Positions 13,397 to 64,000 of a stretch of 64,000 nt of DNA are shown here, piece after piece. Under the pieces are notes generated by a model, which saw only the letters and a list, made by a program, of their open reading frames with translations, was not told where the DNA came from and searched no databases. The stretch is from positions 42,524 through 106,523 of IMG/VR virus record IMGVR_UViG_3300030117_005808. One strand, written 5' to 3'. The position numbers were made by a program, and so were the translations under genes. The stretch comes from a virus. Numbering within the stretch: position 1 is the stretch's first letter; each line of letters starts with the position of its first letter.

Positions 13397-13399
13397 TAG

Positions 13400-25620: not shown

Positions 25621-25848
25621 ATGAAAACCACCAAATCACAGTTAAAACAAATCATTAAAGAAGAAATGTCAAATGCCCTCAAGGAGCAAGACGGTGAAGA
25701 AATAATGTCTGCCATAGAGGACGTGCCAAAGGCAGCAGAGGACATAGCAGATAAGGTGCGTGATGAGGTTGAAAAAATGGCAGAGCCATCTGGCCTCGAC
25801 CCATCAGTTTTAATGCAGGCTATTGCAGCGTTGTTACAAGCAGATTAA
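25621..25848 (+). CDS. Leader-family protein 1 (75 aa), candidate internal head protein
   Basis: First of six tandem genes whose products begin with the same leader, here MKTTKSQLKQIIKEE. The remaining 60 residues are acidic and helical, with no recognised domain. The leader resembles in length, MKT start and glutamate ending the capsid-targeting peptide of T4 internal proteins, which the prohead protease removes. A role as a protein packaged into the head and delivered with the DNA is inferred, not shown. The first 45 bases are nearly identical to those of the next gene. Confidence 0.6.
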   Translation: MKTTKSQLKQIIKEEMSNALKEQDGEEIMSAIEDVPKAAEDIADKVRDEVEKMAEPSGLDPSVLMQAIAALLQAD

Positions 25849-25861
25849 GGGAAAATAAACA

Positions 25862-26359
25862 GTGAAAACCACCAAATCACAACTGAGACAAATCATTAAA
25901 GAAGAAATAAGCAGCATGCTGAACAAACCAAGAACAGCAGACCAGTTTTTAGAAATGATTAAGTCTCAGTTTAGGCGGGCGGCAACAGAAAAAACTCTTG
26001 AAATGATGGCTAAATACTATGATGCAATGGTTAAGACCGCAGCCGAAAGAGCACCGCTTCAACCCAGCGACCCAAAAGAGATCGCAGCAGAGATTGGTAT
26101 TGCACAGGACAGTCCTTACCTACGGTGGGCTACTTTCCACCTAAACAAGCTTCAACAAGTACCCAGAGAGGCTTATGAAATGCTGCCCGCAAGTGACGAA
26201 CTTACCGCTATGCATTACGACCGCCTCGCAGCAAAAGAGAAAAAGCGAGCAGAGCGAGAGGCAGAGTTGCGCCGCCCGCGTACACCCGAAGAGAAAAAAG
26301 CAGCAGCAATCAAATTTGGTCAAGATATGGCCGCAGGCAAATACGGCCCGCTAGATTAA
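25862..26359 (+). CDS. Leader-family protein 2 (165 aa), candidate internal head protein
   Basis: Starts with GTG behind SD AAGGGA; the GTG is chosen because it places MKTTKSQLRQIIKEE exactly at the N-terminus, as in the neighbours. The body is helical and strongly basic in its last third (REAELRRPRTPEEKKAAAIK). No domain is recognised. Nearly the same leader as in the gene before, but an unrelated body: the leader behaves as an exchangeable cassette. Packaging into the head is inferred from the analogy with T4 internal proteins. Confidence 0.6.
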   Translation: MKTTKSQLRQIIKEEISSMLNKPRTADQFLEMIKSQFRRAATEKTLEMMAKYYDAMVKTAAERAPLQPSDPKEIAAEIGIAQDSPYLRWATFHLNKLQQVPREAYEMLPASDELTAMHYDRLAAKEKKRAEREAELRRPRTPEEKKAAAIKFGQDMAAGKYGPLD

Positions 26360-26370
26360 GGAACAGTATT

Positions 26371-26952
26371 ATGAAAATCACAAGATCACAACTTAAACAG
26401 ATTATCAGAGAAGAGTTGGAAGAAGGCGGTCTCGCTGGGCACTACGACAAGGATCGCGACATCGCCGTATCTGACGCTCTCGTTAATGCGGTGCTTGACA
26501 TGCAGGAGATGCGTGGCGATGCGTATGCTGTAAAGGTTCTTAGAGAGATGGCTAACGACATTGAAAAAGAAATGGCCGCAAAAGACGGCCCCACTATGCA
26601 AGAGGAAGTGAAAAAACAAAGTATAAAGGCAATAATCAAGCCCATTGGTCGTATGACTCGGTACATCTTGAAAACACTCAATTATGATGAAGATCGCGAT
26701 GTTGACTACGGCATACCGGGGGAAGATCCGGGATTTGTAGATGATAAACAGTGGGTTGAACTTAAAAGTCTTGTTCAAACAACTCTTTCCAAGATTCCAA
26801 AGGCAGGAAGGGCCGATGCTATGTATGATGAAATTATGACCAACATTCAAAAACCTCGCCTTCATCGCACAGAGATTGCCGACTTTGCGTCTGCTTTTGA
26901 TGAGTATTTTATCGGGTTAGAGGCTATGGTAAGGGATGGAGATTTAAGATGA
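26371..26952 (+). CDS. Leader-family protein 3 (193 aa), candidate internal head protein
   Basis: Begins MKITRSQLKQIIREE and continues with a 178-residue helical body with no domain that I recognise. It has acidic and basic stretches, no cysteines and no membrane segment. SD is AAGGAA after the previous stop. It overlaps the next gene by ATGA, so translation is coupled. The context of five other leader-bearing genes is its only functional clue. Confidence 0.58.
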   Translation: MKITRSQLKQIIREELEEGGLAGHYDKDRDIAVSDALVNAVLDMQEMRGDAYAVKVLREMANDIEKEMAAKDGPTMQEEVKKQSIKAIIKPIGRMTRYILKTLNYDEDRDVDYGIPGEDPGFVDDKQWVELKSLVQTTLSKIPKAGRADAMYDEIMTNIQKPRLHRTEIADFASAFDEYFIGLEAMVRDGDLR

Positions 26953-27569
26953 AAATCACCAAAGAACTTTTAGAGCAAATGATTGAGGAAGCAGCATCGG
27001 AGTATGTCTATGGTGTTAAAAACCCCGGTCGTGTTGCTAATCAATACAAGATCAAAACAATCAAAAAAGTTATCTTTGAAGAGTTATCCGCAAACCTTAC
27101 TGAGGACGGACACGAAGATACATCCTCAGCTATAAGAAAGTTAAAGACTTCTATTGAAGACGCAGGAGAGATCCTACAAGGTCTCCAAGCACACCACGGT
27201 GATTTACCATCTTGGTGGATGGGCAAAGTAACTATCGCTGCTGACTATCTTAACAAAGCCAGAGACTATTTCCTTGTTTCCGGTGATGTGATGCAAGAAG
27301 AAGAGTTGGACGAGCGATGCCAGAAAGGTTACAAGACCCATCCAACACGCAAAACAAAAGAGATGTACGGCAAGACTTACCGCAATTGTATTAAAGCAGA
27401 AGGCGAGGAAGTTGAAGAGCGCAAACTAAAACCGGGCGAGAAAAGAAAACTTAAACGACTTGAAAAAGAAGTTCCCAAAAAAGACTTTACTGACCAGTAT
27501 GGAAAGGAAGGCGAATCTATTTATTATGCTACCTTGACTAAAATGGCGAAAAAGGATAAGAAAAAATGA
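26949..27569 (+). CDS. Leader-family protein 4 (206 aa), possible double-leader chimera
   Basis: Begins MKITKELLEQMIEEA. Here Ile12-Glu13-Glu14/Ala15 exactly fits the T4 prohead-protease consensus (L/I-x-E before A/G), unlike its neighbours, which read IKE/E. A second leader-like segment, IKTIKKVIFEEL, appears near residue 40, as if two leader proteins had fused. The middle (LPSWWMGKVTIAADYL) and a paired-cysteine segment (RCQKGYKTH ... YGKTYRNC, residues about 120-147) look like conserved modules whose function is unknown. The C-terminus is very Lys-rich. It overlaps both neighbours by ATGA. Confidence 0.58.
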   Translation: MKITKELLEQMIEEAASEYVYGVKNPGRVANQYKIKTIKKVIFEELSANLTEDGHEDTSSAIRKLKTSIEDAGEILQGLQAHHGDLPSWWMGKVTIAADYLNKARDYFLVSGDVMQEEELDERCQKGYKTHPTRKTKEMYGKTYRNCIKAEGEEVEERKLKPGEKRKLKRLEKEVPKKDFTDQYGKEGESIYYATLTKMAKKDKKK

Positions 27570-28183
27570 AAATCACTAGAGAAAAACTAAAGCAAATCAT
27601 CAAGGAAGAACTTGAGAGTGCCCTTAGTGAACAACCACGCGCCATGATCGGCGCAGGTATACCCGGCATTATGAAACGCCTTAGCCCCGTTCCGGACCAT
27701 CTGGTACAAAGCTATAAAGGAAAAAAGAAAGTCTATAACACGAATAATGGAAATATTGTGGCATTAGATGATAGGGGCATTCCTTTTGTTGCATATGCTG
27801 ATGAGATAGAGAAGAACCCCAATGCGGACTACCAATTCGCGATAGACACGCTTAAAAAAAATGGCTATGTAGAAGCTTCTCTAAGTGTCCCTATGTCTCC
27901 GGCAAATCTTGAAGCACTCACTCTCGGAGCTATCAAAGGGGAAGAGATCGACCGTGGCTATGTACAAAGAGCGCGCCCAAACTTTAAGAATCAGGACAAA
28001 GATATCCCCCGGATTAAACAAGTCATCGGCAAGAGAGAACTATCAGACCCAAGTATGCCTAACTGGGATCCCAGCAAAAATCAAATAGTTTACTTGGGAT
28101 CACGGACACTTCGTTCCGGAGATCAGGAAATCTACTTTAAGACATCAAATACTCACAAGTATTATAAAGCATTGTCCAGATAA
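27566..28183 (+). CDS. Leader-family protein 5 (205 aa), candidate internal head protein
   Basis: Begins MKITREKLKQIIKEE. The body starts with a Gly/Pro-rich linker (MIGAGIPGIMKR) and continues with a globular-looking domain of mixed strands and helices, ending YLGSRTLRSGDQEIYFKT. No family is recognised. Of the six it looks most like a folded enzyme or binding domain carried behind the leader, so a structure comparison is likely to be informative. It overlaps the preceding gene by ATGA. Confidence 0.58.
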   Translation: MKITREKLKQIIKEELESALSEQPRAMIGAGIPGIMKRLSPVPDHLVQSYKGKKKVYNTNNGNIVALDDRGIPFVAYADEIEKNPNADYQFAIDTLKKNGYVEASLSVPMSPANLEALTLGAIKGEEIDRGYVQRARPNFKNQDKDIPRIKQVIGKRELSDPSMPNWDPSKNQIVYLGSRTLRSGDQEIYFKTSNTHKYYKALSR

Positions 28184-28196
28184 AGGGAATAACATT

Positions 28197-28646
28197 ATGA
28201 AAACCACCAAACAACAACTTAGACAAATCATCAAAGAAGAGTTAGAGGTCATCCTCACAAACGAGGAGGCAGGCGAACTCTTTGGCGAGGGTGTTGAAGC
28301 AGAGTTAGAAGAAGAGTTGAACGAAGATCTGACTACTATTATGCAGAATCTTACACCTGAGAATCTTGATTTGATTGTTAGGTCTATCATTCAGGTTGGC
28401 ACAACATTTGGTGTTCCGATGCTCGCCGCCGCCCTTGGTAAGTTGGGCCTTGAAGCAGCACAGGCAGCAAGAACAGCCGGCAAGGCGAAAACGATGATTG
28501 GTGATAAGGATTCCGGCAGGTTAGTTGATTTTCTGTATCATGAAATAACAGGTTATAGAGATTTTAAAGGGCAGGATAAGCAGTCACTTGAAGATGCCGA
28601 AAAAGAGTTCCCAATGGCGCCCGCCCGTCCCCCTATGCCTAAATAA
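28197..28646 (+). CDS. Leader-family protein 6 (149 aa) with a hydrophobic helix
   Basis: Begins MKTTKQQLRQIIKEE, with SD AAAGGGA before the ATG. An acidic helical segment follows (residues 20-45). Next comes a long hydrophobic helix at about 62-90 (IIQVGTTFGVPMLAAALG), which could insert in or cross a membrane. The C-terminus is Pro-rich. Among internal-head candidates, a membrane-active one could act during DNA entry; that is speculation. It is the last gene before the promoter of the gp47/gp46 fusion. Confidence 0.58.
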   Translation: MKTTKQQLRQIIKEELEVILTNEEAGELFGEGVEAELEEELNEDLTTIMQNLTPENLDLIVRSIIQVGTTFGVPMLAAALGKLGLEAAQAARTAGKAKTMIGDKDSGRLVDFLYHEITGYRDFKGQDKQSLEDAEKEFPMAPARPPMPK

Positions 28647-28711: not shown

Positions 28712-31700
28712 TTGAAGATAGCACATATCGCGGATACACACATCCGCAACTATAAGTATCATAGAGAGTATCGTGAGATATTCGATCTTATCTATGATAG
28801 ACTGAAAACAGAGAAAGTTGACTACATTGTTCACTGCGGAGATCTCGCACACACAAAGACACAACTTTCTCCTGAATACTTTGACTTGGCGACATCGTTC
28901 TTAAAGAACCTTGCCGACATTGCGCCGACCTACATCATTCTTGGCAACCACGACGGTAACCTAAAGAATGAACACAGGCAAGACGCAATCACGCCAATCG
29001 CAAACGCACTCCGACACCCGAATCTCAACCTGTTAAAGAACGCAGGCGAGACGATTGTCGAAGGCAACATAGCGTTTAACGTTCTTTCCGTCTTTGATGA
29101 AGAGAACTGGGTGAAGCCGACAAGCGACAAACGCATTAACATTGCGCTGTATCACGGCTCTGTGTCCGGTGTTACAACCGACACAGGCTGGGTAATGACG
29201 CACGGCGACCACCCTATCACAGTCTTTGAAGGGCACGACTATGTGTTCCTCGGGGACATCCACAAAACAAACCAAATCCTCGATGACGAGGGACGTGTAA
29301 GGTATCCGGGCTCCACTGTTCAGCAGAACTTTGGTGAGACGGATGACAAAGGCTTCCTGCTCTGGAACATCCAAAGCAAAGAAGACTTTACTTGTGAACA
29401 CGTTGTAATCCCAAACCCCAAGCCTTTTATAACAATAAACCTAACCCCCACTGGGCGTATGCCCAAAGGCTTGACCGTGAAGAAGGGTGCAAGATTACGA
29501 CTTGTGTCTAACAATAATCTATCTCTTGAAGCGATGCGAAAGGCAGTTGATGTCGCAAAGCAACGCTTCAAGCCCGATACTATTACATTCTTAAACCGCG
29601 CAGCAGGGGAGCGTGGTAATGTTGAAGAAATCACGGACAGTATTCAACAAGACGATATGCGTAATCCACAGATCCAAGAGGAACTTATCCGCGAGTATCT
29701 AGTAGATTACCAAGCCAGCGAAGAACTGATGAAAAAGGTTCTGGACCTTAATACTCTCTACATTAAGAAGGCAGAAGAGTCCGAGGAGATCTCTAGAAAC
29801 ATCAAGTGGCGTATCAACGATCTACAGTGGGATAATCTGTTTAACTACGGTGAAGGCAATAGAATTGATTTTAATAAACTAAACGGAACAGTTGGTATCT
29901 TCGGTAAGAACTACTCCGGTAAATCCAGTGTGGTGGACAGCTTATTATATACTTTGTACAACACAACGTCTAAGAATGAGCGTAAGAATGTCAACATTAT
30001 TAATCAAAACAAGGACGAAGGCTCTGGCGAGGTTGTAATTACTATTGGCGATGAGCAGTATTACGTCCGTCGCGGCTCGTCAAAATACACAAAACGACTC
30101 AAGGGTGTGGAAACTCTTGAAGCCAAAACTGATCTTGACTTCTTCAAGGTCGGCCCAGACGGAGAAAAGGTAAGTTTAAATGGCCTCACAAGAAACGACA
30201 CAGACAAAAACATCAGAAAGGTATTCGGAACTCTTGATGACTTCCTTCTCACTAGTTTGTCTAGCCAGTTGGATAGTCTTTCCTTTATTAGGGAAGGTAG
30301 CACAAAACGGAAGGAAATCTTGGCAAAGTTTCTCGACTTGGAAATCTTCGAGAAAAAGTTCAGACTAGCGAAGGAAGATGCATCTGATATGCGAGGTGCT
30401 TTGAAGCGCCTTGAAGGACGCGACTATGATACAGAGATCGAAGAAGCAGAACAAGAGCACACTCAATGTGAAGAGGAGTTGGATGACCAAAAGGTTAAGT
30501 GCGCCGACTTAAGGCAAGAAGTTATTGATCTTAGAGACAACATTACAGAGATAGAAGGTAAGATTGCATCTATCCCTGCTGAGATGATTGATATTGCAAA
30601 AGTCAAAATAGATATTAGACAAAGGCGTCTGGACCTCACCTCGGCACAAAAAGATCTTGAACAAGACAAGAAAACACTCAAAGATAAAAAGAAACTTACC
30701 AAAGATATTGATAAGTTCTTGGCAGGTTATGACGTTACAGATCTTGGCGATAAAGAAAAGAGGTGCGATCAGCTAGGCTTTGAGATAATGGATTTGGACA
30801 GAGAAATGATCCAGATCGTGAAAAAAGCTGCATCTCTCGACGATCCCGGCTTCTTGCGTGGTTGCAAGTGTTTGCACGAAGCAGAAGAAGCTTTAGCACA
30901 GAAGCCAGACCTTGAACAAAAAATCGAAGAACTTTCTCAGGAACTTGAAGGGCTTGATGTTGAATCTGTCAAGAAAAGCCTTGAGCAGTATCGTTCGCTA
31001 GCAGATAAAAAGAACCAAACGACGAGAGATATCACAACCACAGAACTTGCTATTGCTCGTAACCAGAATACGATCAATCGTCTGGCCACAGAGTTGTCTA
31101 ATCTAAAAGACAAAGAAACATCTTATGAAGACAACCGTGAAGCTATTGAAAACTTGGAAGCACTCCTGACTGAGAAAGACGGCTTAGACGCAGATATATC
31201 TATTAAGGAAGGTAAGCTAGAGGCTTGCAAAGATAAAATTGTTGATTACCACAGAAGAGTTGGCTCGTTAGAGCAAAAAGTTATCAACATTAAGGATCAG
31301 AAGAACGACTATCTTGAGCTACGCGAACAGTTCGCAGCCTACGATCTTTACATGCGTTGTATGCACCCTAACGGTATCGCATACGATGTTATCAAGAAGA
31401 AGCTTCCAGTTATCAACCAAGAGATAGCAAAGGTTCTTACAAACCTAACAAACTTTGAAGTCCTTTTTGAAGAGGATGGAAATAAGCTTGATATCTTTAT
31501 CAAGCACCCGAAGCATGACCCTCGTCCACTCTCTATGGCTTCGGGAGCAGAGAAGACAATGGCCGCAATGGCTATCCGTCTTGCTTTCCTTGCAGTGTCA
31601 AACCTGCCTACAAGCGACATTATGGTGCTTGATGAACCGGGGACAGCATTGGATGAGGAGCACTTACAAGCATTTACCCAACTTTTGGACATGATTAAGG

Positions 31701-31810
31701 TGCATTTCAAGACAACACTTTTGATTTCCCATTTGGATTCTTTGAAAGATGTTGTTGATTTAACACTTGACATTTCCAAAAAAGAAGGTTATGCTTATAT
31801 AAACCAATAA
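28712..31810 (+). CDS. gp47-gp46: Fused gp47-gp46 recombination nuclease (Mre11/SbcD + Rad50/SbcC in one chain)
   Basis: A 1032-residue protein joining two subunits that T4 encodes separately. Residues 1-240 are the Mre11/gp47 phosphodiesterase: Asp8/His10, Asp44, LGNHD at 77-81, His148 and GDIH at 181-184. Residues about 370-1032 are the Rad50/gp46 ATPase: Walker A GKNYSGKS at 398-405, long coiled coil at about 540-900, ABC signature SMASGAEK at 941-948, Walker B VLDEP near 972-976 and the H-loop at about 1007. The coiled-coil apex has Cys-Lys-Cys at 718-720 rather than CxxC. It would resect DNA ends for recombination-dependent replication. The TTG start is fixed by the catalytic Asp8 and SD AAGGGG. 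Confidence 0.93.
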   Translation: MKIAHIADTHIRNYKYHREYREIFDLIYDRLKTEKVDYIVHCGDLAHTKTQLSPEYFDLATSFLKNLADIAPTYIILGNHDGNLKNEHRQDAITPIANALRHPNLNLLKNAGETIVEGNIAFNVLSVFDEENWVKPTSDKRINIALYHGSVSGVTTDTGWVMTHGDHPITVFEGHDYVFLGDIHKTNQILDDEGRVRYPGSTVQQNFGETDDKGFLLWNIQSKEDFTCEHVVIPNPKPFITINLTPTGRMPKGLTVKKGARLRLVSNNNLSLEAMRKAVDVAKQRFKPDTITFLNRAAGERGNVEEITDSIQQDDMRNPQIQEELIREYLVDYQASEELMKKVLDLNTLYIKKAEESEEISRNIKWRINDLQWDNLFNYGEGNRIDFNKLNGTVGIFGKNYSGKSSVVDSLLYTLYNTTSKNERKNVNIINQNKDEGSGEVVITIGDEQYYVRRGSSKYTKRLKGVETLEAKTDLDFFKVGPDGEKVSLNGLTRNDTDKNIRKVFGTLDDFLLTSLSSQLDSLSFIREGSTKRKEILAKFLDLEIFEKKFRLAKEDASDMRGALKRLEGRDYDTEIEEAEQEHTQCEEELDDQKVKCADLRQEVIDLRDNITEIEGKIASIPAEMIDIAKVKIDIRQRRLDLTSAQKDLEQDKKTLKDKKKLTKDIDKFLAGYDVTDLGDKEKRCDQLGFEIMDLDREMIQIVKKAASLDDPGFLRGCKCLHEAEEALAQKPDLEQKIEELSQELEGLDVESVKKSLEQYRSLADKKNQTTRDITTTELAIARNQNTINRLATELSNLKDKETSYEDNREAIENLEALLTEKDGLDADISIKEGKLEACKDKIVDYHRRVGSLEQKVINIKDQKNDYLELREQFAAYDLYMRCMHPNGIAYDVIKKKLPVINQEIAKVLTNLTNFEVLFEEDGNKLDIFIKHPKHDPRPLSMASGAEKTMAAMAIRLAFLAVSNLPTSDIMVLDEPGTALDEEHLQAFTQLLDMIKVHFKTTLLISHLDSLKDVVDLTLDISKKEGYAYINQ
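31767..31795 (+). promoter_or_regulatory. Possible sigma-70 promoter before the small membrane genes
   Basis: TTGACA at 31767-31772, 17-bp spacer, TATGCT at 31790-31795, inside the 3' end of the gp47/gp46 gene. The -10 matches only four of six consensus bases. A late-type motif follows at 31810. Confidence 0.35.
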
Positions 31811-35419: not shown

Positions 35420-37393
35420 ATGGCAGATCAAAATAGAAACCCAAGAAACCCAAGATCAGAATTGTTTAAGGCTCTGACTAGAGTTTTCTCTGGTCCACTA
35501 ACAACTAGAAGAACACAGACCGGCCGTAGACTGAGAAGGTATCAACTGGACAAATTCCAGAGTAGATTTACTTCTGCTAGTGGTCAGTCTTTTAAAACCG
35601 CTCGTTCATATAATGCATACAATATGCAACTGGGGATTATGAACCAACACAACCGCACCGAGAGGTATGTTGATTTTGACCAGATGGAGTACACTCCAGA
35701 GATAGCGTCAGCCCTTGATATTTATGCTGATGAGATGACCACGCATTCCTCGTTACAGCCAATGCTTAATATTAAATGTTCGAATGAAGAAATTAAAGCG
35801 GTCCTTGATTCCTTGTATCACAATATTTTAAATATCGATCACAATCTTTTCGGCTGGTGTCGCTCTATGTGCAAGTATGGGGATTTCTTCCTGTATCTTG
35901 ACATAGATGAGAAGTTCGGTATTAAGACCGGCATTGGACTGCCTTCTAGGGAGGTGGAGCGCCTCGAAGGTGAGGACGAGACAAATCCAAACTATGTCCA
36001 GTACCAGTGGAACACAGCGGGTATAACTTTGGAAAATTGGCAAATGGCCCACTTCCGAATCCTTGGGAACGACAAGTATGCACCATATGGAACGTCTGTT
36101 TTAGAACCTGCCCGTCGCATCTTTCGTCAACTAATTCTTTTGGAAGATGCTATGATGGCATACCGTATTGTTCGCTCTCCGGAGCGCCGAGTAATAAAAA
36201 TTGATGTTGGCCAGATCCCTCCTAATGAAGTAGAGCAGTATGTTCAAAAAGTCATCACATCAATGAAACGAAACTCTGTTGTTGACGAAAACACAGGCCG
36301 AGTTGATCTTCGATACAACCCTCTGTCTATTGAGGAAGATTATTACATCCCCGTTCGCGGAGAATCAAAAACAGAAATTACATCTTTACCCGGTGGAACA
36401 TTTACCGGTGACATCGACGACGTTAAATACCTCAGAGACAAACTATTCTCTGCTCTTAAAATTCCTGCTTCCTATCTAACAAATGCTGAAGGTGCTGAGG
36501 AGGATAAAACAACGCTTGCCCAGAAAGATATTCGTTTCGCCAGAACAATTCAGAGACTACAGAGAGTTGTGGTGTCTGAGCTAGAAAAAATTGGTATTAT
36601 CCATCTTTACACTTTAGGATTTAGAGACGAAGATTTGTTAAATTTTGAGCTTGCACTTAATAATCCGTCCAAAATCTCGGAATTACAAGAGCTAGAGCAC
36701 TGGGATAAAAAGTTTGCAGTCGCGGGCGCAGCCACAGAAGGCTTCTTCTCACGCCGTTGGGTCGCCGAGCATCTATTCTGTATGTCCCACGAAGAGTTTG
36801 AAAGAAACCAAAGAGAAATCTTCTACGATCGTAAGTTTGATGCTTCGCTTGCAGCCGTTGCAGAGGCGATGCAAGAAGAGGCAGCAGGAGCAGGCCTTGG
36901 TGATCTTGGAGGCGATGAAGGCCTTGGAGATCTTGGGGATCTTGGCGATGAGGACCTTGGTGGCGATCTCGAAGATCTCGGCGGTGATGAGCCCGCAGCA
37001 GAGGAGCCAGCAGAACCTGAGATTGGTGATGACCCACTCTTAGCCGCCCCCGGTCGAAGAGAAGATGATGGTTATACGACCCCCGGATCCAAAGGTAAGG
37101 TTTATTATCCTGTTAAGAAAGGACGCGACAACAGGGCAAAAGGTGCCATGAAGCGTCACCGTTCATCTGTAGCAGGTACAAATATGGATCCTCGCAAGAC
37201 TTTCCCCGGTAAGAGTGGTTATGGAGGCTTAGATTCCTTAGCCAAGGGGATGTTTGAATCGAAAGAAACTAATTATGATAATGGTTTTAGAACCGAGGAA
37301 GAAAAGATACATAATACTAACTTTGAAGTCAAAAGACTATTGGAAAGTTTAGGTAACTCAACGGAGATTAGCAATGAAACTAAGGCACAATAA
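35420..37393 (+). CDS. gp20: Portal vertex protein, gp20-like
   Basis: A 657-residue portal protein, the dodecameric ring through which DNA enters and leaves the head. Conserved parts include MEYTPEIASALDIYADEMTT (about 90-110), the APYGTSVLEPARRIFRQL region (about 215-232) and PASYLTNAEGAEEDKTTLAQ (about 350-370). T4 gp20 has 524 residues; the excess here is a C-terminal extension with an acidic Gly-Leu-Asp repeat region (about 490-537, units like GDLGGDEGLGDLGD) and a basic segment. The 3' end overlaps the next gene by 20 nt. Confidence 0.93.
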   Translation: MADQNRNPRNPRSELFKALTRVFSGPLTTRRTQTGRRLRRYQLDKFQSRFTSASGQSFKTARSYNAYNMQLGIMNQHNRTERYVDFDQMEYTPEIASALDIYADEMTTHSSLQPMLNIKCSNEEIKAVLDSLYHNILNIDHNLFGWCRSMCKYGDFFLYLDIDEKFGIKTGIGLPSREVERLEGEDETNPNYVQYQWNTAGITLENWQMAHFRILGNDKYAPYGTSVLEPARRIFRQLILLEDAMMAYRIVRSPERRVIKIDVGQIPPNEVEQYVQKVITSMKRNSVVDENTGRVDLRYNPLSIEEDYYIPVRGESKTEITSLPGGTFTGDIDDVKYLRDKLFSALKIPASYLTNAEGAEEDKTTLAQKDIRFARTIQRLQRVVVSELEKIGIIHLYTLGFRDEDLLNFELALNNPSKISELQELEHWDKKFAVAGAATEGFFSRRWVAEHLFCMSHEEFERNQREIFYDRKFDASLAAVAEAMQEEAAGAGLGDLGGDEGLGDLGDLGDEDLGGDLEDLGGDEPAAEEPAEPEIGDDPLLAAPGRREDDGYTTPGSKGKVYYPVKKGRDNRAKGAMKRHRSSVAGTNMDPRKTFPGKSGYGGLDSLAKGMFESKETNYDNGFRTEEEKIHNTNFEVKRLLESLGNSTEISNETKAQ

Positions 37394-38201
37394 GAAAAGA
37401 AATACTGCTTTCTTGTATGAGGCGCTTGTTAAAGAGTTGACGAAGGCCATCGTTAATAAAGATATAAAAAAGAAAAACGCTTTAGTTTCCACGCTGAAAG
37501 AAAATTTCTCTACTGGGCAAGTTCTTCAAAAAGAGTTGGAACTGATTAGAACTTTGTCCGAGACCAAGAGAGTAGATATGTTCACAGCAGAGCGGTTGTT
37601 ATCAGAATCGGTTTCTCGTTACTCCAAATTGGACGCAGACAAAATTTTTGAAGCACAGTCTAGACTTATAGAAAATATTAATAAAAACTTTGGTAAAGAA
37701 GTTTATAGCAATTTTGTACCAAACTACAAGCACCTCGCTACTATCTGGCAATTGTTTACACAAAATACTTCTGTAAAAGAAAAAGTTCTTTTAGAGAAAG
37801 CCTTAGTTTTTTCTATGACTACAAAAGGTAAAGAACCCGTTAAGGCAAAACAAATGCCCCATGTTGACAAGCTAGTGTTTAAAACTGTTATTGAAAATTT
37901 TAACAAGTCTTATGATGGTGAACTTTTAACAGAACAAAAACAATTATTAAATAACTATATTGTCTCGTTCGGCGCAAATGAAGTGGAATTCAAAGTATAC
38001 CTTAATGAAGAGCTTGGAAGGCTAAAAAACGAAATATCTTTACTTAAAGAAAAAGAAATAATGCTTGAAAATAAAGACCTTTTTAGCAAGTTAGGAGACG
38101 TTAGAGTAACGCTTGATAAATTTCAAACTGAAAAAATTAATCCCACAATGCTAGAAAAAATTATGCAGGTGCAAAAACTTGTGAAGGAATGTTCTGAATA
38201 A
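37374..38201 (+). CDS. Conserved prohead-region protein (275 aa)
   Basis: A 275-residue, mostly helical protein that starts in the last 20 bases of the portal gene. It begins MKLRHNKKRNTAFLYEALV and is rich in Lys and Glu throughout, with a coiled-coil stretch at about 215-240 (RLKNEISLLKEKEIML). It has no recognised domain. In T4 the genes between portal and protease (67, 68) encode prohead core proteins, so a core or scaffold role is possible but is argued from position only. Confidence 0.5.
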   Translation: MKLRHNKKRNTAFLYEALVKELTKAIVNKDIKKKNALVSTLKENFSTGQVLQKELELIRTLSETKRVDMFTAERLLSESVSRYSKLDADKIFEAQSRLIENINKNFGKEVYSNFVPNYKHLATIWQLFTQNTSVKEKVLLEKALVFSMTTKGKEPVKAKQMPHVDKLVFKTVIENFNKSYDGELLTEQKQLLNNYIVSFGANEVEFKVYLNEELGRLKNEISLLKEKEIMLENKDLFSKLGDVRVTLDKFQTEKINPTMLEKIMQVQKLVKECSE

Positions 38202-38743
38202 TGGCTATCAAGATCACCGTTGGCTCCAAGCGACCACCAGAACCTAAAAAGCCGAACCCAATAGCAACGGTTGAACTTCAAATAAGAAGAACTGCTAATG
38301 GTGATTATTATATTTCTGATCATGCTGATATTGACATCATAATAATGGCAAACAAAGTTTTGGCCATTGCAAAAGATGTTATGTCAGAAATGGTATACGG
38401 TGCCCAAGACAGGCTATTCTCTTTTCTGGTAAAAAAGGGTCTTATCTCGGCCGAATCTATACAGGGTGGTTCCGTATATGGCTCTATGGAAGGTGCTTTA
38501 CTACCATCTGACGAAATAAACGTCATCAATTTGACCATACTTAATATTTCAAAGTACATAGACGAAGAGCGTCCATACTTTGAGTTTGTTGAAAAGTTTG
38601 ATGAAATGGAAACGGAGTACTTCACAGAGCCTGACGAAGAAGATTCAACTGAGCTTGGAGAAGTCCCACAAGAAGTTGAAAAGGGTACCTTGCGACCCGG
38701 TTACAGCTACGGCCCGTATTGGCAATCTTATACCTATGAGTAG
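38201..38743 (+). CDS. Conserved prohead-region protein (180 aa)
   Basis: A 180-residue protein starting within the previous stop codon (TAATG). It has an alpha/beta N-terminal domain (VELQIRRTANGDYYISDHADIDI) and an acidic C-terminus ending in an aromatic segment (RPGYSYGPYWQSYTYE). No domain or T4 homologue is recognised. The position between portal and protease suggests a head-assembly function. Confidence 0.48.
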   Translation: MAIKITVGSKRPPEPKKPNPIATVELQIRRTANGDYYISDHADIDIIIMANKVLAIAKDVMSEMVYGAQDRLFSFLVKKGLISAESIQGGSVYGSMEGALLPSDEINVINLTILNISKYIDEERPYFEFVEKFDEMETEYFTEPDEEDSTELGEVPQEVEKGTLRPGYSYGPYWQSYTYE

Positions 38744-38751
38744 AGGTTAAA

Positions 38752-39057
38752 ATGGAATTATTGTGGTTTGCGCTCGCTTGCTACGGCTTGACTTATCTTG
38801 TCGTGTATGCGAGCATTTTTAATAGAATCCGACCAAGCAGAGAATGGCTTGGTGGTTTTGGCAAGTTATTTAACTGCACCCTGTGCTTTGGCTTCCACGC
38901 AGGCTGGTTTTTGTTTGTCATAAACCGTTGGACAGAACTATTTACTTTTGACTATACTATCGCAAACTTTTTTATTTGTGGTTGGGTAGGTGCTGGAGTT
39001 TCTTACATTCTTTCAATGATTGTTGGTGACGAAGGTATTCGGATAACAAAGGAGTAA
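38752..39057 (+). CDS. Small membrane protein with Cys-x-x-Cys-x-Gly motif (DUF1360-like)
   Basis: A 101-residue protein with three or four hydrophobic segments (residues about 2-22, 38-56, 64-92). Between the first two is FNCTLCFGFHAGW, reminiscent of the Cys-x-x-Cys-x-Gly-x-Trp signature of the DUF1360 membrane family; that match is tentative. A membrane protein in the prohead cluster could anchor the assembling prohead to the cell membrane, as T4 proheads do at the portal. That function is inference. Confidence 0.45.
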   Translation: MELLWFALACYGLTYLVVYASIFNRIRPSREWLGGFGKLFNCTLCFGFHAGWFLFVINRWTELFTFDYTIANFFICGWVGAGVSYILSMIVGDEGIRITKE

Positions 39058-39060
39058 ACA

Positions 39061-39111
39061 ATGCGACGTAGAAACATACCAGAGGTTCGACGCTGCTGTA
39101 GCGGCTCTTAA
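39061..39111 (+). CDS. Possible 16-codon leader peptide before the protease gene
   Basis: An ATG behind a good SD (AAAGGAG, 6 nt spacing) opens a 16-codon frame ending in TAA: MRRRNIPEVRRCCSGS, rich in Arg and containing two adjacent Cys. It is followed by a GC-rich hairpin and then the protease gene. The arrangement resembles a translated leader with an attenuator-like stem. It may also be a remnant with no function. Confidence 0.3.
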   Translation: MRRRNIPEVRRCCSGS

Positions 39112-39115
39112 CTCG

Positions 39116-39132
39116 GGCGGGTCGCGCCCGCC
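39116..39132 (+). promoter_or_regulatory. GC-rich hairpin upstream of the prohead protease
   Basis: GGCGGG / CCCGCC with a TCGCG loop, 20 nt before the protease ATG. A weaker hairpin (GCTGC, TGTA loop, GCGGC) lies at 39092-39105. There is no U-tract, so it is not an intrinsic terminator; an RNA-stability or translation-control element is more likely. Confidence 0.45.
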
Positions 39133-39152
39133 AACGTCAATTGGAGATAACT

Positions 39153-39767
39153 ATGGGAAAATCACTTTTACGAGAATATTACGCACTTTGTGATGGTGGC
39201 GTCTGTCAAGACTTACTGACTGAAGAAGAAAAGAAGTTGATGTCCGCCGGCAAGAAGTTTTACATGACCGGCTGCATGCAGAAGTTTGATACACCAAACG
39301 GAAACGGTCGCGTTTATTCCAAAGAGATCCTCCAACGCGAAGTAGAAAACTATTGGAAACTTGTCAAGGAGCGTAGAGCACTTGGTGAGTTAGACCATCC
39401 CGATGACTCTGTTATTAACTTAAAGAATGCATCTCACCTTGTAACAGACATGTGGTGGGACGGCCCCGCTCTTATGGGCAAGGTCGAGGTTCTAGATACA
39501 CCATCAGGCAACATTTTAAAACAACTGGCTAACTCTGGTGTCACACTTGGCATTTCATCCCGTGGCCTTGGGTCAGTCAAAGAGGTTCGCGGAACTACAA
39601 TGGTCGAAGACGATTTTCAACTTATCTGCTTTGATTTCGTCTCGGAACCATCTACTCCCGGTGCTTTCATGCATTCCGATAAAAGAATGCGAGAACACAA
39701 AGAACCAAATATTTTTACAAAAGCAGATAAGATAAACAGAATCTTAAATAATATTTTGAGAGATTGA
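39153..39767 (+). CDS. gp21: Prohead protease, gp21-like
   Basis: A 204-residue serine protease that matures the prohead by cutting scaffold, core proteins and capsid protein. It has the family pattern NGNGRVYSKEIL (49-60), ELDHPDD with the probable catalytic His82, and GISSRGLGS with the probable catalytic Ser at 135/136. The start is the ATG at 39153 because GGAG sits 7 nt before it; an upstream in-frame TTG at 39141 would overlap that SD. Two bases separate it from the next gene, whose product has a strict gp21-type cleavage site. Confidence 0.92.
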   Translation: MGKSLLREYYALCDGGVCQDLLTEEEKKLMSAGKKFYMTGCMQKFDTPNGNGRVYSKEILQREVENYWKLVKERRALGELDHPDDSVINLKNASHLVTDMWWDGPALMGKVEVLDTPSGNILKQLANSGVTLGISSRGLGSVKEVRGTTMVEDDFQLICFDFVSEPSTPGAFMHSDKRMREHKEPNIFTKADKINRILNNILRD

Positions 39768-39768
39768 G

Positions 39769-40197
39769 ATGAAAAGAACAGAACTTAAAAAATTAATAAA
39801 GCCATTAGTAAAAGAATGTGTCCAAGAGACGATTTTAAATGATGGTCTTTTATCAAATATAGTCTCTGAGGTAATGCAAGGAATGGGAAACCAGTTCCTC
39901 GTAGAAAATAAAGAACAGGTTGTTCCCACAATGTCTAACGAAAACAGTGTACAACTAGAACAACTAAAAGAAAGACAACAAGAGACTAGAAAACGATTGC
40001 TTGATGAAATAGGTCACGATGCTTACAATGGTGTTGACCTTTTTGAAGGCACGACGCCTATTAGAGATAGCGGGCAACCCTCCGCGACGGCTCAAGCGAA
40101 CCCAATGTTTGGTCAGGATCCTGACGATGCAGGCGTGGACATTTCATCGATCGTCGCATTAGGTGGAAAAAACTGGAAAGCTTTAGCGAGTAACTAA
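39769..40197 (+). CDS. Probable prohead core protein with leader-like N-terminus
   Basis: A 142-residue protein beginning MKRTELKKLIKPLVKECVQE, a basic amphipathic start resembling the leaders at 25621-28197. It has the sequence Leu91-Phe92-Glu93/Gly94, an exact fit to the T4 prohead-protease consensus. The middle (residues 60-80) is a charged helix and the C-terminus is Gly/Ala/Asp-rich. Placed directly after the protease and before the scaffold, it is most likely a head-internal or core protein processed during maturation. Confidence 0.5.
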   Translation: MKRTELKKLIKPLVKECVQETILNDGLLSNIVSEVMQGMGNQFLVENKEQVVPTMSNENSVQLEQLKERQQETRKRLLDEIGHDAYNGVDLFEGTTPIRDSGQPSATAQANPMFGQDPDDAGVDISSIVALGGKNWKALASN

Positions 40198-40204
40198 CTA
40201 TTTA
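40197..40204 (+). promoter_or_regulatory. Candidate late-promoter motif before the 40224 gene
   Basis: ACTATTTA within AACTATTTAAAG, overlapping the upstream stop codon and ending 19 nt before the ATG. The sequence after it, AAAGGAAGAGAGG, supplies the SD. Confidence 0.42.
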
Positions 40205-40223
40205 AAGGAAGAGAGGAAAAACA

Positions 40224-40682
40224 ATGGCAACAGATCCCAAAACAGGACAGCAAATATTTGGTGGCTCTTATGGTGTAGGATTCAACAACGTCGGAAGCTA
40301 TCAGGCCAGCGCCAAACCATATATTCAGACAGAACTTGTAGTGCCAGCATCTTCTAGTAACGCAGGCACTGCACTCGAAGTCGCGTTCCCGAAAGTGACA
40401 AAATTTATAACTGTACGAAATGATGGTACAGCATCGGAAGAAATTAGGCTTGCTTTTGCATCTGGCGGACTTGGAGTCAATAAGCTTGGGGCGACATCTG
40501 GTAACAACTACATCAAAATCGCACAATCTGCATCATTCTCAGCAGACTTTAGGGTTACAAAACTTTATCTAATGTCAGAGGATGGCCACACTCCAAACGC
40601 CACCGTCATTGCCGGCTTAACCCAAATAGATGCTACGCGACTTCCAGACTCTTGGAAGGGCGATAATGGTGTTGGCGATTAA
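40224..40682 (+). CDS. Small beta-rich virion protein, possible head decoration protein
   Basis: A 152-residue protein with Gly/Asn-rich N-terminus (FGGSYGVGFNNVGSYQASAKP) and a body that reads as alternating beta strands (KFITVRNDG, EIRLAFASGGLGV, FRVTKLYLMS). No domain is recognised. It has its own late-type motif and lies among head genes, which would fit an abundant capsid decoration protein; this is inference from size and context. Confidence 0.42.
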   Translation: MATDPKTGQQIFGGSYGVGFNNVGSYQASAKPYIQTELVVPASSSNAGTALEVAFPKVTKFITVRNDGTASEEIRLAFASGGLGVNKLGATSGNNYIKIAQSASFSADFRVTKLYLMSEDGHTPNATVIAGLTQIDATRLPDSWKGDNGVGD

Positions 40683-61558: not shown

Positions 61559-62746
61559 ATGTATTTTCAAACGCTCGACGATAAGGGCGAATGTGTAGGA
61601 GTGTATAAAGATGGAAACCTGTATTTCGAGGACATCCCAAGTGGGTGTGCCCGGACGTGGAAATACGCCGAATATCTTGAAAAAGATGATGTGGACTACG
61701 GCAGTATTTTCTGCGGAAATCGGAGTCTTAATGACGCTTGTCCAGCTTTCCTGATCGACGATTGGGTTGCTGTTGAAGACAAGTTAAAGGCATTTTATCG
61801 CTCGTTTGTGTTGGCCAAGGTCAATATGGACGAGAATTGTTTTTTTGACCTTGTTCCAAAGCCATTTTTGCTTGAATATTGCGAAATACGCAACAAAATC
61901 ACGCAATATGTCTTTGAAAACTACGAAAAACCGCAAAACTATGACTTTATGGTCGATTTGACCAAGGTATTGGCACGCATACGACACCAAAGGCTAAACA
62001 TTGATGTATCATCCCTCTCTAATCAGGCTCATTTGGCCAAGTTTCGGAAGGCAATGAAGAAGTTTAGCCAGATTGACCCGTATTGCCGCTACAACATCAA
62101 CGGAACCAAGACAGGTCGGCTAACAACCCAGAAGAACTCGTTCCCCGTTATGACAATGGACAAAGATTTTCGCTCTATCGTCAAACCGACTAACGACTGG
62201 TTCGTGGAGCTAGATTTCAATGCCGCAGAGGTGCGAACACTTATGGCACTAGGAGGCTCTGAGGTGCCCCTAGAAGACATTCACGACTGGAATGTGCGTA
62301 ACCTATTTAACGCGCACACGACACGCGAGGAGGGCAAACAGAAGTTCTTTTCGTGGCTATACGATGAGAATAAAATCAACCCAAGACTCTCCAAGTATTA
62401 CGACCGAGATAAGGTGCGTGAAATGCACTGGGATGGGCAAGTTGTCAAGACTATGTTTGGACGAGAGATTGAAGCAGACCGCAAGCACGCCCTAAACTAC
62501 ATTATTCAGAGCACCACAGCAGATCTTGTGCTCCGTCAGGTTATCAAGGTCCACGAAATGCTCCGAGATATGAAGTCTTTCATTGCATTTACGATTCACG
62601 ACAATATAGTGCTTGACATCGTAGACGAAGAGCGTTATATTATTCCTAAGTTAATTGAAAAGTTCTCTGATACTGACCTTGGCGAATATCTCGTAAATGT
62701 CAAAGCAGGAAAGAACTTCGGTAATCTAAGGACGTTAAATCTATGA
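61559..62746 (+). CDS. Family A DNA polymerase, polymerase domain only
   Basis: A 395-residue protein with the palm and fingers of Pol I-type polymerases but no 3'-5' exonuclease domain. Motif A is VELDFNAAEVRTL with Asp219. The O-helix has the exact spacing Arg256-xxx-Lys260-xxx-Phe264-xxx-Tyr268. Motif C is IHDN at 346-349, where the usual HDE glutamate is replaced by Asn. The segment NINGTKTGRLTTQKNSFP (about 179-196) is typical of the thumb-palm junction. T4 itself uses a family B enzyme. SD is GGGGGAC. It overlaps the next gene by ATGA. Confidence 0.88.
   Translation: MYFQTLDDKGECVGVYKDGNLYFEDIPSGCARTWKYAEYLEKDDVDYGSIFCGNRSLNDACPAFLIDDWVAVEDKLKAFYRSFVLAKVNMDENCFFDLVPKPFLLEYCEIRNKITQYVFENYEKPQNYDFMVDLTKVLARIRHQRLNIDVSSLSNQAHLAKFRKAMKKFSQIDPYCRYNINGTKTGRLTTQKNSFPVMTMDKDFRSIVKPTNDWFVELDFNAAEVRTLMALGGSEVPLEDIHDWNVRNLFNAHTTREEGKQKFFSWLYDENKINPRLSKYYDRDKVREMHWDGQVVKTMFGREIEADRKHALNYIIQSTTADLVLRQVIKVHEMLRDMKSFIAFTIHDNIVLDIVDEERYIIPKLIEKFSDTDLGEYLVNVKAGKNFGNLRTLNL
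62613..62641 (+). promoter_or_regulatory. Sigma-70-type promoter for the tubulin-like gene
   Basis: TTGACA at 62613-62618, 17-bp spacer, TATATT at 62636-62641. It is inside the polymerase gene, about 100 nt before the ATG at 62743. Confidence 0.5.
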
Positions 62747-63573
62747 ACATTATCGGTCTAGGACAAGCAGGCTGCAATATCGCGGACGCAATGGCGCAAT
62801 ACCCACAATACAACATCTACAAGATTGATGTTGGATTGGAGGGTAAGAAATGCTTGGGCATTAAGCAACAATCTGGTCCCGAAGAGTACGAGGCCAATGC
62901 ACCATCAATGAAAACTTTCTTCCGTAACATCAAGGGTGATACTCTTCTTATTGTTGGAGGTTCAGGGAGTATTTCTGCTATGTCTCTTCGTATTATGGAG
63001 ACAATCAAAGACAAATGCAAGATAGATTTGCTTTATATCAAACCAGATGGAAGCCTCTTGACTGGAAAGCGCCAGATGCACGAAAAAGTAACATATAATG
63101 TGTTGCAAAACTATGCCCGTTCTGGTGCCATCAGCCGGATGTATCTTATTTCAAACTCACAGTTGGAGAACATCCTCGGTGATGTGCCGATTATGGGCTA
63201 CTTTGATAAGTTGAACGAACTCATTGTTTCAACGATACATATGATTAACGTTTTTAAGAATTCTACCCCTGTTCTTGGTGGGCTCCGTGAGCCTGCTGAG
63301 ACACGACGGATTTGCACAGTTGGAATCTACGATATGGAAAAAGATGAAGAAAAGTTGTTTTTTTCGCTTGACACCATCCGTGAGACGTGCTATATTTATA
63401 GTGTTGGGGAAAGAAGACTGCGCGAAGATGGATCTCTTCACAAGACCATCATTTCGCAGATGAAGGGCAAGACAAATGATGAGACACCAAATGTCTCGTT
63501 TGGCGTCTTTCCTACCAACTACGAGACGGATTATGGGTATGTCATTGCTTATAGTCCCAATATACAAAACTAG
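62743..63573 (+). CDS. FtsZ/tubulin-like GTPase-fold protein
   Basis: A 276-residue protein that follows the FtsZ/tubulin N-terminal fold step by step. IIGLGQAGCNIADAM (3-17) is the first nucleotide loop. DTLLIVGGSGSISAM (66-80) is the tubulin signature loop (GGGTGSG-like). TGKRQMHEKVTYNVL and MYLISNSQLENILGD match the FtsZ segments around GRRRM and VIPNDRLL. PIMGYFDKLNELIVSTI would be the long central helix. The catalytic NxDxxD/E loop is not evident, and the C-terminal domain is short (FtsZ is over 380 residues). It may polymerise, or bind host FtsZ. It is coupled by ATGA to the polymerase gene. Confidence 0.78.
   Translation: MNIIGLGQAGCNIADAMAQYPQYNIYKIDVGLEGKKCLGIKQQSGPEEYEANAPSMKTFFRNIKGDTLLIVGGSGSISAMSLRIMETIKDKCKIDLLYIKPDGSLLTGKRQMHEKVTYNVLQNYARSGAISRMYLISNSQLENILGDVPIMGYFDKLNELIVSTIHMINVFKNSTPVLGGLREPAETRRICTVGIYDMEKDEEKLFFSLDTIRETCYIYSVGERRLREDGSLHKTIISQMKGKTNDETPNVSFGVFPTNYETDYGYVIAYSPNIQN
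63368..63396 (+). promoter_or_regulatory. Sigma-70-type promoter for the SSB gene
   Basis: TTGACA at 63368-63373, 17-bp spacer, TATATT at 63391-63396 with an extended -10 TG (63388-63389). It lies inside the tubulin-like gene, 225 nt before the SSB ATG. Confidence 0.55.
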
Positions 63574-63621: not shown

Positions 63622-64000
63622 ATGGCTATTGATCTAAACAAGATGCGTGCAAAACTGACTGCACTTCAAAACCGAGGCGAAAAGAAGGATTCTGCTTTCT
63701 GGCGTCCAGAGGATGGCGAACAAACGATTCGTATCGTCCCGACTGCTGATGGCGACCCCTTCAAGGAGTATTGGTTCCACTACAACTTGGGTAAGAACCC
63801 CGGTTTCCTGTCCCCGAAGCGTAACTTCGGTATTGACGACCCGCTGAACGATTTCGTTCGTCAGTTGTTCAAGGATGGAACAGAGGATTCTATCAAGATG
63901 GCGAAGAACCTTATGGCTCGTCAACGTTTCTTTGCTCCCGTGTTGGTTCGCGGTGAGGAAGAGAAGGGAGTCCGTATCTGGGGCTTTGGTAAGATGGCGT
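63622..64000 (+). CDS. gp32: Single-stranded DNA-binding protein, gp32-like (truncated by window end)
   Basis: The first 126 residues of a gp32-type SSB, which coats single strands during replication and recombination. It starts MAIDLNKMRAKLTALQNRG, then has FWRPEDGEQTIRIVPTADG, FKEYWFHYNLGK and KGVRIWGFGKMA, matching the gp32 core (IRFLP strand and following). No cysteine is present in the visible part, so the zinc site of T4 gp32 is absent at its usual place (GIDDPLNDFV stands there). SD AAGGAG precedes the ATG. The rest lies beyond 64000. Confidence 0.78.
   Translation, partial: MAIDLNKMRAKLTALQNRGEKKDSAFWRPEDGEQTIRIVPTADGDPFKEYWFHYNLGKNPGFLSPKRNFGIDDPLNDFVRQLFKDGTEDSIKMAKNLMARQRFFAPVLVRGEEEKGVRIWGFGKMA

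What the first reader, a model, noticed from the sequence alone, without database searches (positions are those of the whole stretch)
62743..63573. Compact FtsZ/tubulin-like protein beside the polymerase gene
Seen: nucleotide loop GLGQAGCN, signature loop VGGSGSIS, and FtsZ-like order of the following segments. Known: PhuZ and TubZ are tubulin-like proteins of jumbo phages and some plasmids or phages. Here the protein is only 276 residues, lacks a clear NxDxxD/E catalytic loop, and occurs in a T4-like genome between polymerase and SSB. It may be a minimal filament, a non-hydrolysing cap, or a decoy that blocks host division.
Basis: partly seen in the sequence, partly recalled or inferred. Interest (0 to 1): 0.82.

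Follow-up and report, generated by a model that had tools for sequence, protein, structure and literature searches.

The report
Tubulin-fold partner of phage polymerase
Hundreds of uncultured phage genomes carry a small protein with the fold of tubulin and FtsZ that has lost the parts normally used to stack into GTP-splitting filaments, and whose gene follows, and evolves in step with, the gene of a compact DNA polymerase, so it may be a cytoskeletal fold reused in DNA replication or repair.

Summary
The ORF at 62743-63573 is a real gene. At least 578 relatives exist in IMG/VR; none was found in cultured phages or plasmids. An AlphaFold2 model (pLDDT 93, pTM 0.91) has the tubulin/FtsZ fold: all 50 listed PDB matches are FtsZ or TubZ (best E 5.5e-13, TM 0.74). 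The T1 loop and the two guanine-contact asparagines (N138, N158) are invariant, so nucleotide binding is likely. The catalytic T7 motif NxDxxD/E is absent in 107/107 members (present in 23/23 control FtsZs), and helices H8 and H11 are missing from the model, so ordinary GTPase filaments are unlikely. The gene lies behind a compact family-A DNA polymerase (often with a small MazG-like gene between) and before a gp32-like SSB in every informative locus: 129/129 anchored on this gene, 78/78 anchored on the polymerase. Its divergence tracks the polymerase's beyond shared phylogeny (partial r 0.67; other pairs at most 0.35). A host-division decoy is disfavoured because the gene behaves like a core replication gene. 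Best reading: a nucleotide-binding, non-treadmilling tubulin-fold accessory protein of the polymerase/SSB/RecA module. The structural part is strong; the function is inferred and untested.

The parts
62743..63573 (+). tubulin-fold protein, 276 aa
   Evidence: ORF; 62 to at least 578 relatives; AF2 model pLDDT 93.1; PDB Foldseek hits FtsZ/TubZ
62728..62732 (+). AAGGA, Shine-Dalgarno-like, 10 nt before the ATG
   Evidence: read from the sequence
62743..62746 (+). ATGA overlap of this gene's start with the polymerase stop
   Evidence: sequence; overlap or gap of 20 nt or less in 55 of 78 polymerase-anchored loci
62755..62778 (+). T1 loop, residues 5-12 GLGQAGCN
   Evidence: G5 L6 G7 invariant in 62 sequences filtered at 80% identity
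62956..62976 (+). T4-equivalent loop, residues 72-78 GGSGSIS, degenerate against GGGTG(S/T)G
   Evidence: G73, G75 and S78 conserved; GGGTG in 0 of 107 members
63154..63156 (+). N138, T6/H6 guanine-contact asparagine (by alignment)
   Evidence: invariant 62/62; aligns with the FtsZ IPN asparagine
63214..63216 (+). N158 in H7, guanine-contact position (by spacing)
   Evidence: invariant 62/62
63238..63261 (+). conserved end of H7, residues 166-173 HMINVFKN
   Evidence: among the most conserved stretches of the protein
63262..63306 (+). residues 174-188, stretch that replaces loop T7 and helix H8
   Evidence: no NxDxxD/E in 107/107; least conserved region; no helix here in the model
63307..63570 (+). 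C-terminal domain, residues 189-276, without H11
   Evidence: strands and helices in the model
61559..62746 (+). compact family-A DNA polymerase, 395 aa, the constant upstream partner gene
   Evidence: Pfam DNA_pol_A E 7.4e-14; invariant motif residues; model and PDB matches to Pol theta, Klenow, KlenTaq
63622..64000 (+). gp32-like single-strand DNA-binding protein, start of gene (runs off the window)
   Evidence: Pfam gp32 E 5.4e-5, below the gathering score; its full-length relative in L049 E 3.2e-14

Best explanation
A minimal tubulin-superfamily protein repurposed as an accessory factor of a compact family-A DNA polymerase in the phage's polymerase / SSB / RecA / 5'-exonuclease module. Proposed working: it binds a guanine nucleotide (or related NTP) in the usual T1/T4/T6/H7 pocket and uses nucleotide state, or the conserved end of H7 (HMINVFKN), to bind the polymerase, tuning its activity or placing it on SSB-coated DNA. 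Shown here: the gene is real, its predicted fold, conservation of the pocket, loss of T7, H8 and H11 in sequence and model, fixed gene order, overlap with the polymerase gene, and co-divergence with it. Inferred: nucleotide binding, no GTP hydrolysis, no canonical filament. Speculative: direct contact with the polymerase and what that contact does.
For: Fold; invariant N138, N158, G5-L6-G7 and nearly invariant D29; T7 motif 0/107 against 23/23 in control FtsZs; order polymerase or MazG-like gene - this gene - SSB in 129/129 loci and 78/78 polymerase-anchored loci; overlap or 20 nt or less to the polymerase gene in 55/78; evolves at the polymerase's rate (mean identity 46% against 47%); tub-pol partial distance correlation 0.67, highest in all 300 subsamples.
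Against: No biochemical or structural evidence of contact with the polymerase. Co-divergence and gene order would also follow from co-transfer of a two-gene block. The polymerase-anchored sample is the 80 polymerases closest to the query. DnaE in 7 of 8 long records means the family-A enzyme is probably not the only replicase, so a strict 'polymerase subunit' is one of several readings.
Confidence: 0.42

Rival explanations
1. A PhuZ/TubZ-like filament protein, shrunk and with a non-canonical subunit interface, that positions or segregates replicating phage DNA; lying beside replication genes reflects shared timing.
For: Same fold as TubZ and PhuZ; nucleotide pocket kept; part of the family has a short acidic C-terminal tail, a feature that matters for PhuZ assembly (PMC3678025).
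Against: T7 motif, H8 and H11, which make the protofilament contact in FtsZ, tubulin and phiKZ PhuZ (PMC3678025), are absent; T1-T4 is 68 residues against 86 in FtsZ; no chimallin match in 8 long records (no positive control); PhuZ itself is accessory, in 66.2% of chimalliviruses (PMC10299810), unlike this gene.
Confidence: 0.22
2. A free nucleotide sensor or regulator of the replication/nucleotide-metabolism genes: it binds (d)GTP/GDP and signals through another partner, not through the polymerase.
For: Pocket kept while hydrolysis motif lost; a MazG-like gene is the neighbour in 44 loci (assigned by eye, no Pfam or PHROG hit).
Against: Does not explain why the strongest co-divergence is with the polymerase.
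Confidence: 0.16
3. A decoy or cap of host FtsZ: it keeps the nucleotide ('top') face, lacks the T7 ('bottom') face, and so could end a host filament and block division.
For: Anatomy: top pocket kept, T7/H8 lost. Phages do encode FtsZ inhibitors (lambda Kil, PMC3961180 abstract).
Against: Only indirect, but against: core gene with fixed order, rate and divergence tied to the polymerase, 36-47% identity across relatives with constant motifs rather than rapid host-driven change; the H2-T3-H3 part of the top face is also shortened.
Confidence: 0.12
4. A plain Rossmann-fold nucleotide-binding enzyme.
For: 17 of 48 members match Pfam TrkA_N (best E 8.8e-6) in the N-terminal glycine-loop region.
Against: Full-length model matches only FtsZ/TubZ in the 50 listed PDB hits; an H7-like central helix and a C-terminal domain are present; the most frequent NCBIfam hit is FtsZ (7/48 members, best E 0.0018).
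Confidence: 0.03

Closest known systems
PhuZ (phiKZ gp39, 201phi2-1) of nucleus-forming jumbo phages
   Same: Phage-encoded, tubulin/FtsZ fold, no N-terminal extension, resemblance around T1
   Different: PhuZ is larger (327 aa in phiKZ), has a T7 aspartate, H8, and a C-terminal helix H11 with acidic tail (PMC3678025), sits in other genomic surroundings and is accessory (PMC10299810); this family has none of those parts and is fixed behind a DNA polymerase gene
FtsZ (bacterial cell division)
   Same: Best fold match (4dxd, TM 0.74); T1, T2 aspartate, T6 asparagine
   Different: No GGGTGTG, no NxDxxD, no H8; about 14% identity; H7 carries N158 where FtsZ has aspartate
TubZ of Bacillus plasmids/phages
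   Same: Fold (2xka, 4ei7; TM about 0.67)
   Different: TubZ is about 380-410 aa in the solved chains; no polymerase-linked context known to me (own knowledge)
A0A6J5RW92, 'FtsZ Cell division GTPase' of an uncultured Caudovirales phage (BFVD)
   Same: Closest viral model (TM 0.82 of the query)
   Different: 452 aa, 11% identity; sequence and context could not be fetched here
FtsZl1 / FtsZl2 families (PMC2875224)
   Same: Precedent for divergent tubulin-superfamily families, FtsZl1 without recognisable T6-H7
   Different: Found in cells, keep the GGGTG(S/T)G signature; FtsZl1 operons with vWA-domain proteins, not DNA polymerases

Membership tests
Tubulin/FtsZ superfamily (fold level) | N-terminal nucleotide domain, central H7, C-terminal domain | tested here: met
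   AF2 model pLDDT 93.1; all 50 listed PDB hits FtsZ/TubZ, best E 5.5e-13
Tubulin/FtsZ superfamily (fold level) | T1 glycine loop and guanine-contact residues in H6/H7 | tested here: met
   G5-L6-G7, N138, N158 invariant in 62 sequences; equivalence by alignment and spacing
Tubulin/FtsZ superfamily (fold level) | T4 signature GGGTG(S/T)G | tested here: not met
   GGGTG in 0 of 107 members; degenerate GxGx(I/V)S(G/A) instead
GTPase-active FtsZ/TubZ/PhuZ | T7 catalytic motif NxDxxD/E | tested here: not met
   0/107 members, 23/23 control FtsZs
GTPase-active FtsZ/TubZ/PhuZ | Helix H8 at the protofilament contact | tested here: not met
   Model goes from H7 (153-172) to strand 190-197 with no helix between
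GTPase-active FtsZ/TubZ/PhuZ | GTP hydrolysis and polymerisation | not testable with these tools
   needs purified protein
PhuZ | C-terminal helix H11 and acidic knuckle | tested here: not met
   Model ends with the last strand; at most a short acidic tail in part of the family, none in the window's protein
PhuZ | Occurs in chimallin-encoding phages | tested here: inconclusive
   No match to phiKZ gp54 in 8 long related records, without a positive control
FtsZ inhibitor / decoy | Binds host FtsZ and blocks division | not testable with these tools
   only indirect evidence, which is against it
DNA polymerase accessory protein | Obligate genomic linkage with the polymerase | tested here: met
   78/78 polymerase-anchored loci with room have it next; 129/129 in the other direction
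DNA polymerase accessory protein | Physical complex with, or effect on, the polymerase | not testable with these tools
   co-divergence is consistent with it but is not proof

The most novel reading that the evidence does not exclude
A tubulin-superfamily protein that is not cytoskeletal at all: it has lost the filament and GTPase machinery, kept the nucleotide pocket, and become an obligate accessory subunit of a DNA polymerase (comparable in logic to thioredoxin with T7 DNA polymerase), fixed in a large group of uncultured phages.
Probability: 0.33. Interest if true: 0.93.

Novelty: new variant of a known kind. Interest (0 to 1): 0.74.

Why it matters
Tubulin-superfamily proteins are generally understood as filament formers. 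A widespread family that keeps the fold and pocket but has lost the catalytic and interface elements, and that is fixed beside and co-diverges with a DNA polymerase, would be the first link between this fold and a polymerase that I know of. It would show what the fold can do without filaments, and it offers a small, confidently modelled protein on which the question can be tested directly.

Tried and rejected
Single-sequence and member-wise Pfam, PHROG and NCBIfam scans gave nothing decisive; the best were FtsZ E 0.0018 and a Rossmann-like TrkA_N hit. PDB sequence search with the profile gave only chance hits. hhalign against FtsZ recovered the expected register over residues 2-168 but with low probability (2%, p 0.024), and against a single PhuZ only the T1 region, so homology rests on fold plus motif order and not on sequence statistics. 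The single bacterial hit (WOR-3 MAG) is a phage piece between two 100-N gaps: a scaffold join, not evidence of a prophage. I first took the compact polymerase for the main replicase in need of a processivity partner; DnaE-type Pol III alpha in 7 of 8 long records makes a Pol I-like role (repair, gap filling, recombination) more likely, so the clamp-substitute idea was dropped; the gp45 clamp search also lacked a viral positive control. T4 replication proteins found only a helicase, UvsX and gp46 relative in one related record. Literature searches found no description of this family.

Full report
Observation. The ORF 62743-63573 encodes 276 aa and starts inside the last codons of the upstream gene with an ATGA overlap and an AAGGA 10 nt before the ATG. 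The window is bases 42524-106523 of a 106,523-base uncultured virus record. A search with the single protein found 62 IMG/VR contigs at 36-100% identity. No relative was found in 50,697 phage records (best E about 1), in plasmids, or in 84,980 species genomes apart from one piece of a MAG that lies between two 100-N gaps.

Fold. AlphaFold2 with A1 gave mean pLDDT 93.1 and pTM 0.91. Foldseek against the PDB returned 712 matches at E <= 1e-3; the 50 listed are all FtsZ or TubZ, best 4dxd (E 5.5e-13, TM 0.74 of the query, 14% identity). Among viral models the closest is a 452-aa 'FtsZ Cell division GTPase' of an uncultured Caudovirales phage (TM 0.82), followed by further phage tubulin-like models including PhuZ of phage Noxifer. 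Sequence methods alone are weak: FtsZ (TIGR00065) is the most frequent NCBIfam hit (7 of 48 members, best E 0.0018), Pfam Tubulin touches 4 members, and hhalign against bacterial FtsZs gives the right register for T1, T4, T6 and the start of H7 but low probability.

Nucleotide pocket. In 62 sequences filtered at 80% identity, G5-L6-G7, N138 and N158 are invariant, D29 (position of the T2 aspartate, D46 in S. aureus FtsZ) is 60/62, and G73, G75 and S78 of the T4 region are conserved, though T4 is no longer GGGTG(S/T)G. By alignment and spacing N138 and N158 match the two guanine contacts of tubulins, with an aromatic residue usual at 154; this equivalence is inference from alignment and established tubulin structure. 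Nucleotide binding is therefore likely but not shown.

Loss of filament machinery. No member of 107 has NxDxxD/E within 22 residues after the H7 signature; all 23 control FtsZs have it. Residues 174-188 are among the least conserved stretches, whereas the end of H7 (HMINVFKN) is among the most conserved. The model passes from H7 (153-172) to strand 190-197 without H8 and ends with the last strand, without H11. T1 to T4 is 68 residues against a median of 86 in FtsZ, so part of the upper interface is trimmed too. In FtsZ the T7 aspartates of the neighbouring subunit position the attacking water (PMC8936486). [quoted passage not shown] From this I infer no GTP hydrolysis by the known mechanism and no canonical protofilament. 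A non-canonical polymer is not excluded, and part of the family has a short acidic tail.

Context. The upstream gene is a 395-aa family-A DNA polymerase (Pfam DNA_pol_A E 7.4e-14; PHROG DNA polymerase). Motif residues are invariant across 20 diverse copies, and its model (pLDDT 92) matches Pol theta, apPOL, KlenTaq and Klenow. Downstream are a gp32-like SSB, a RecA/UvsX-like recombinase and, in several loci, a 5'-3' exonuclease. In 129 of 129 loci where both neighbours are on the contig, the neighbouring recognised genes are the polymerase (85) or a small MazG-like gene that follows the polymerase (44) on one side and SSB on the other (154 loci from about 141 distinct contigs). In a few loci other ORFs lie between polymerase and this gene. 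As an independent test, loci were collected by the polymerase alone: 78 of 79 have this gene as the next recognised one or after the MazG-like gene, and the remaining contig stops 2 nt after the polymerase match. In 55 of 78 the two genes overlap or lie within 20 nt. The sample is limited to the 80 polymerases closest to the query alignment. By contrast PhuZ occurs in 66.2% of chimalliviruses and can be deleted (PMC10299810).

Co-divergence. Over 79 loci with all four genes, mean pairwise identity is 46% for this protein, 47% for the polymerase, 63% for SSB and 71% for RecA. Over 55 non-redundant loci, with the upstream gene as a further control, the distance correlation is 0.89 for tub-pol. 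After regressing out the other genes it is 0.67 (5-95% range of subsamples 0.58-0.75), against 0.31 for tub-SSB, 0.12 for upstream-pol, 0.01 for pol-SSB and 0.35 for SSB-RecA; tub-pol is highest in all 300 subsamples. A physical or functional partnership would give this, but co-transfer of a pol-tub block would too, and the upstream gene is strongly diverged, which weakens it as a control.

Kind of phage. Eight long related records (147-194 kb) gave no Pfam-tubulin match at E <= 1 except one 73.7-kb record with a weak match (E 0.0045) inside this family's own gene position range; this means no second, canonical tubulin was seen. They have no family-B polymerase, no recognised Pol I-type 3'-5' exonuclease domain, and 7 of 8 have a DnaE-type Pol III alpha. 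The family-A polymerase is therefore probably a Pol I-like repair or gap-filling enzyme, and this protein its companion. No chimallin match was found (no positive control).

Mechanism and rivals. The best-supported explanation is a nucleotide-binding accessory protein of the polymerase/SSB/RecA module (0.42). A non-canonical PhuZ-like filament (0.22), a free nucleotide sensor (0.16) and an FtsZ decoy or cap (0.12) remain. The decoy idea fits the anatomy (top face kept, T7 face lost) but not the fixed, polymerase-linked evolution. A plain Rossmann enzyme is nearly excluded (0.03).

Novelty. It belongs to the tubulin/FtsZ superfamily by fold but fails defining features of FtsZ, TubZ and PhuZ, so it is not filed as any of them. 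I found no paper describing it (open-licence literature only).

Noticed in passing
window 25621-28646: Six ORFs in a row share an N-terminal peptide close to MK(I/T)TKxQLxQIIKEEL but differ after it; at least eight ORFs of the related record G043 carry the same start. It could be a shared targeting or packaging tag.
   Followed up: no
L064 and L065 (same virus record, outside the window), about record positions 2351-31516: About 30 contiguous ORFs that look like sugar and surface-glycan biosynthesis genes (glycosyltransferases, epimerases, a NeuB-like sialic acid synthase at 12720-13565), read by eye; a smaller set is in G043 at 134-148 kb.
   Followed up: no
L272/L273, record G043 37127-40579, and 7 of 8 long related records: The phages encode a DnaE-type DNA polymerase III alpha in addition to the compact family-A polymerase.
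   Followed up: partly
L272, record G043 27054-28625: A 523-aa ORF on the minus strand that looks like the chaperonin GroEL, read by eye.
   Followed up: no
L145 (CP070664.1, WOR-3 MAG) 7588-12827: The only bacterial 'genome' hit is a phage piece between two 100-N gaps, so the MAG scaffold is probably a false join.
   Followed up: yes
window 28712-31810: 1032-aa ORF with an SbcD-like start; its relative in G043 matches T4 gp46 (E 1.8e-5): apparently an SbcD-SbcC fusion.
   Followed up: no
window 3839-13396: A 3185-aa ORF, with a 3117-aa counterpart in G043 (110522-119875), unassigned; possibly a structural or fibre protein.
   Followed up: no
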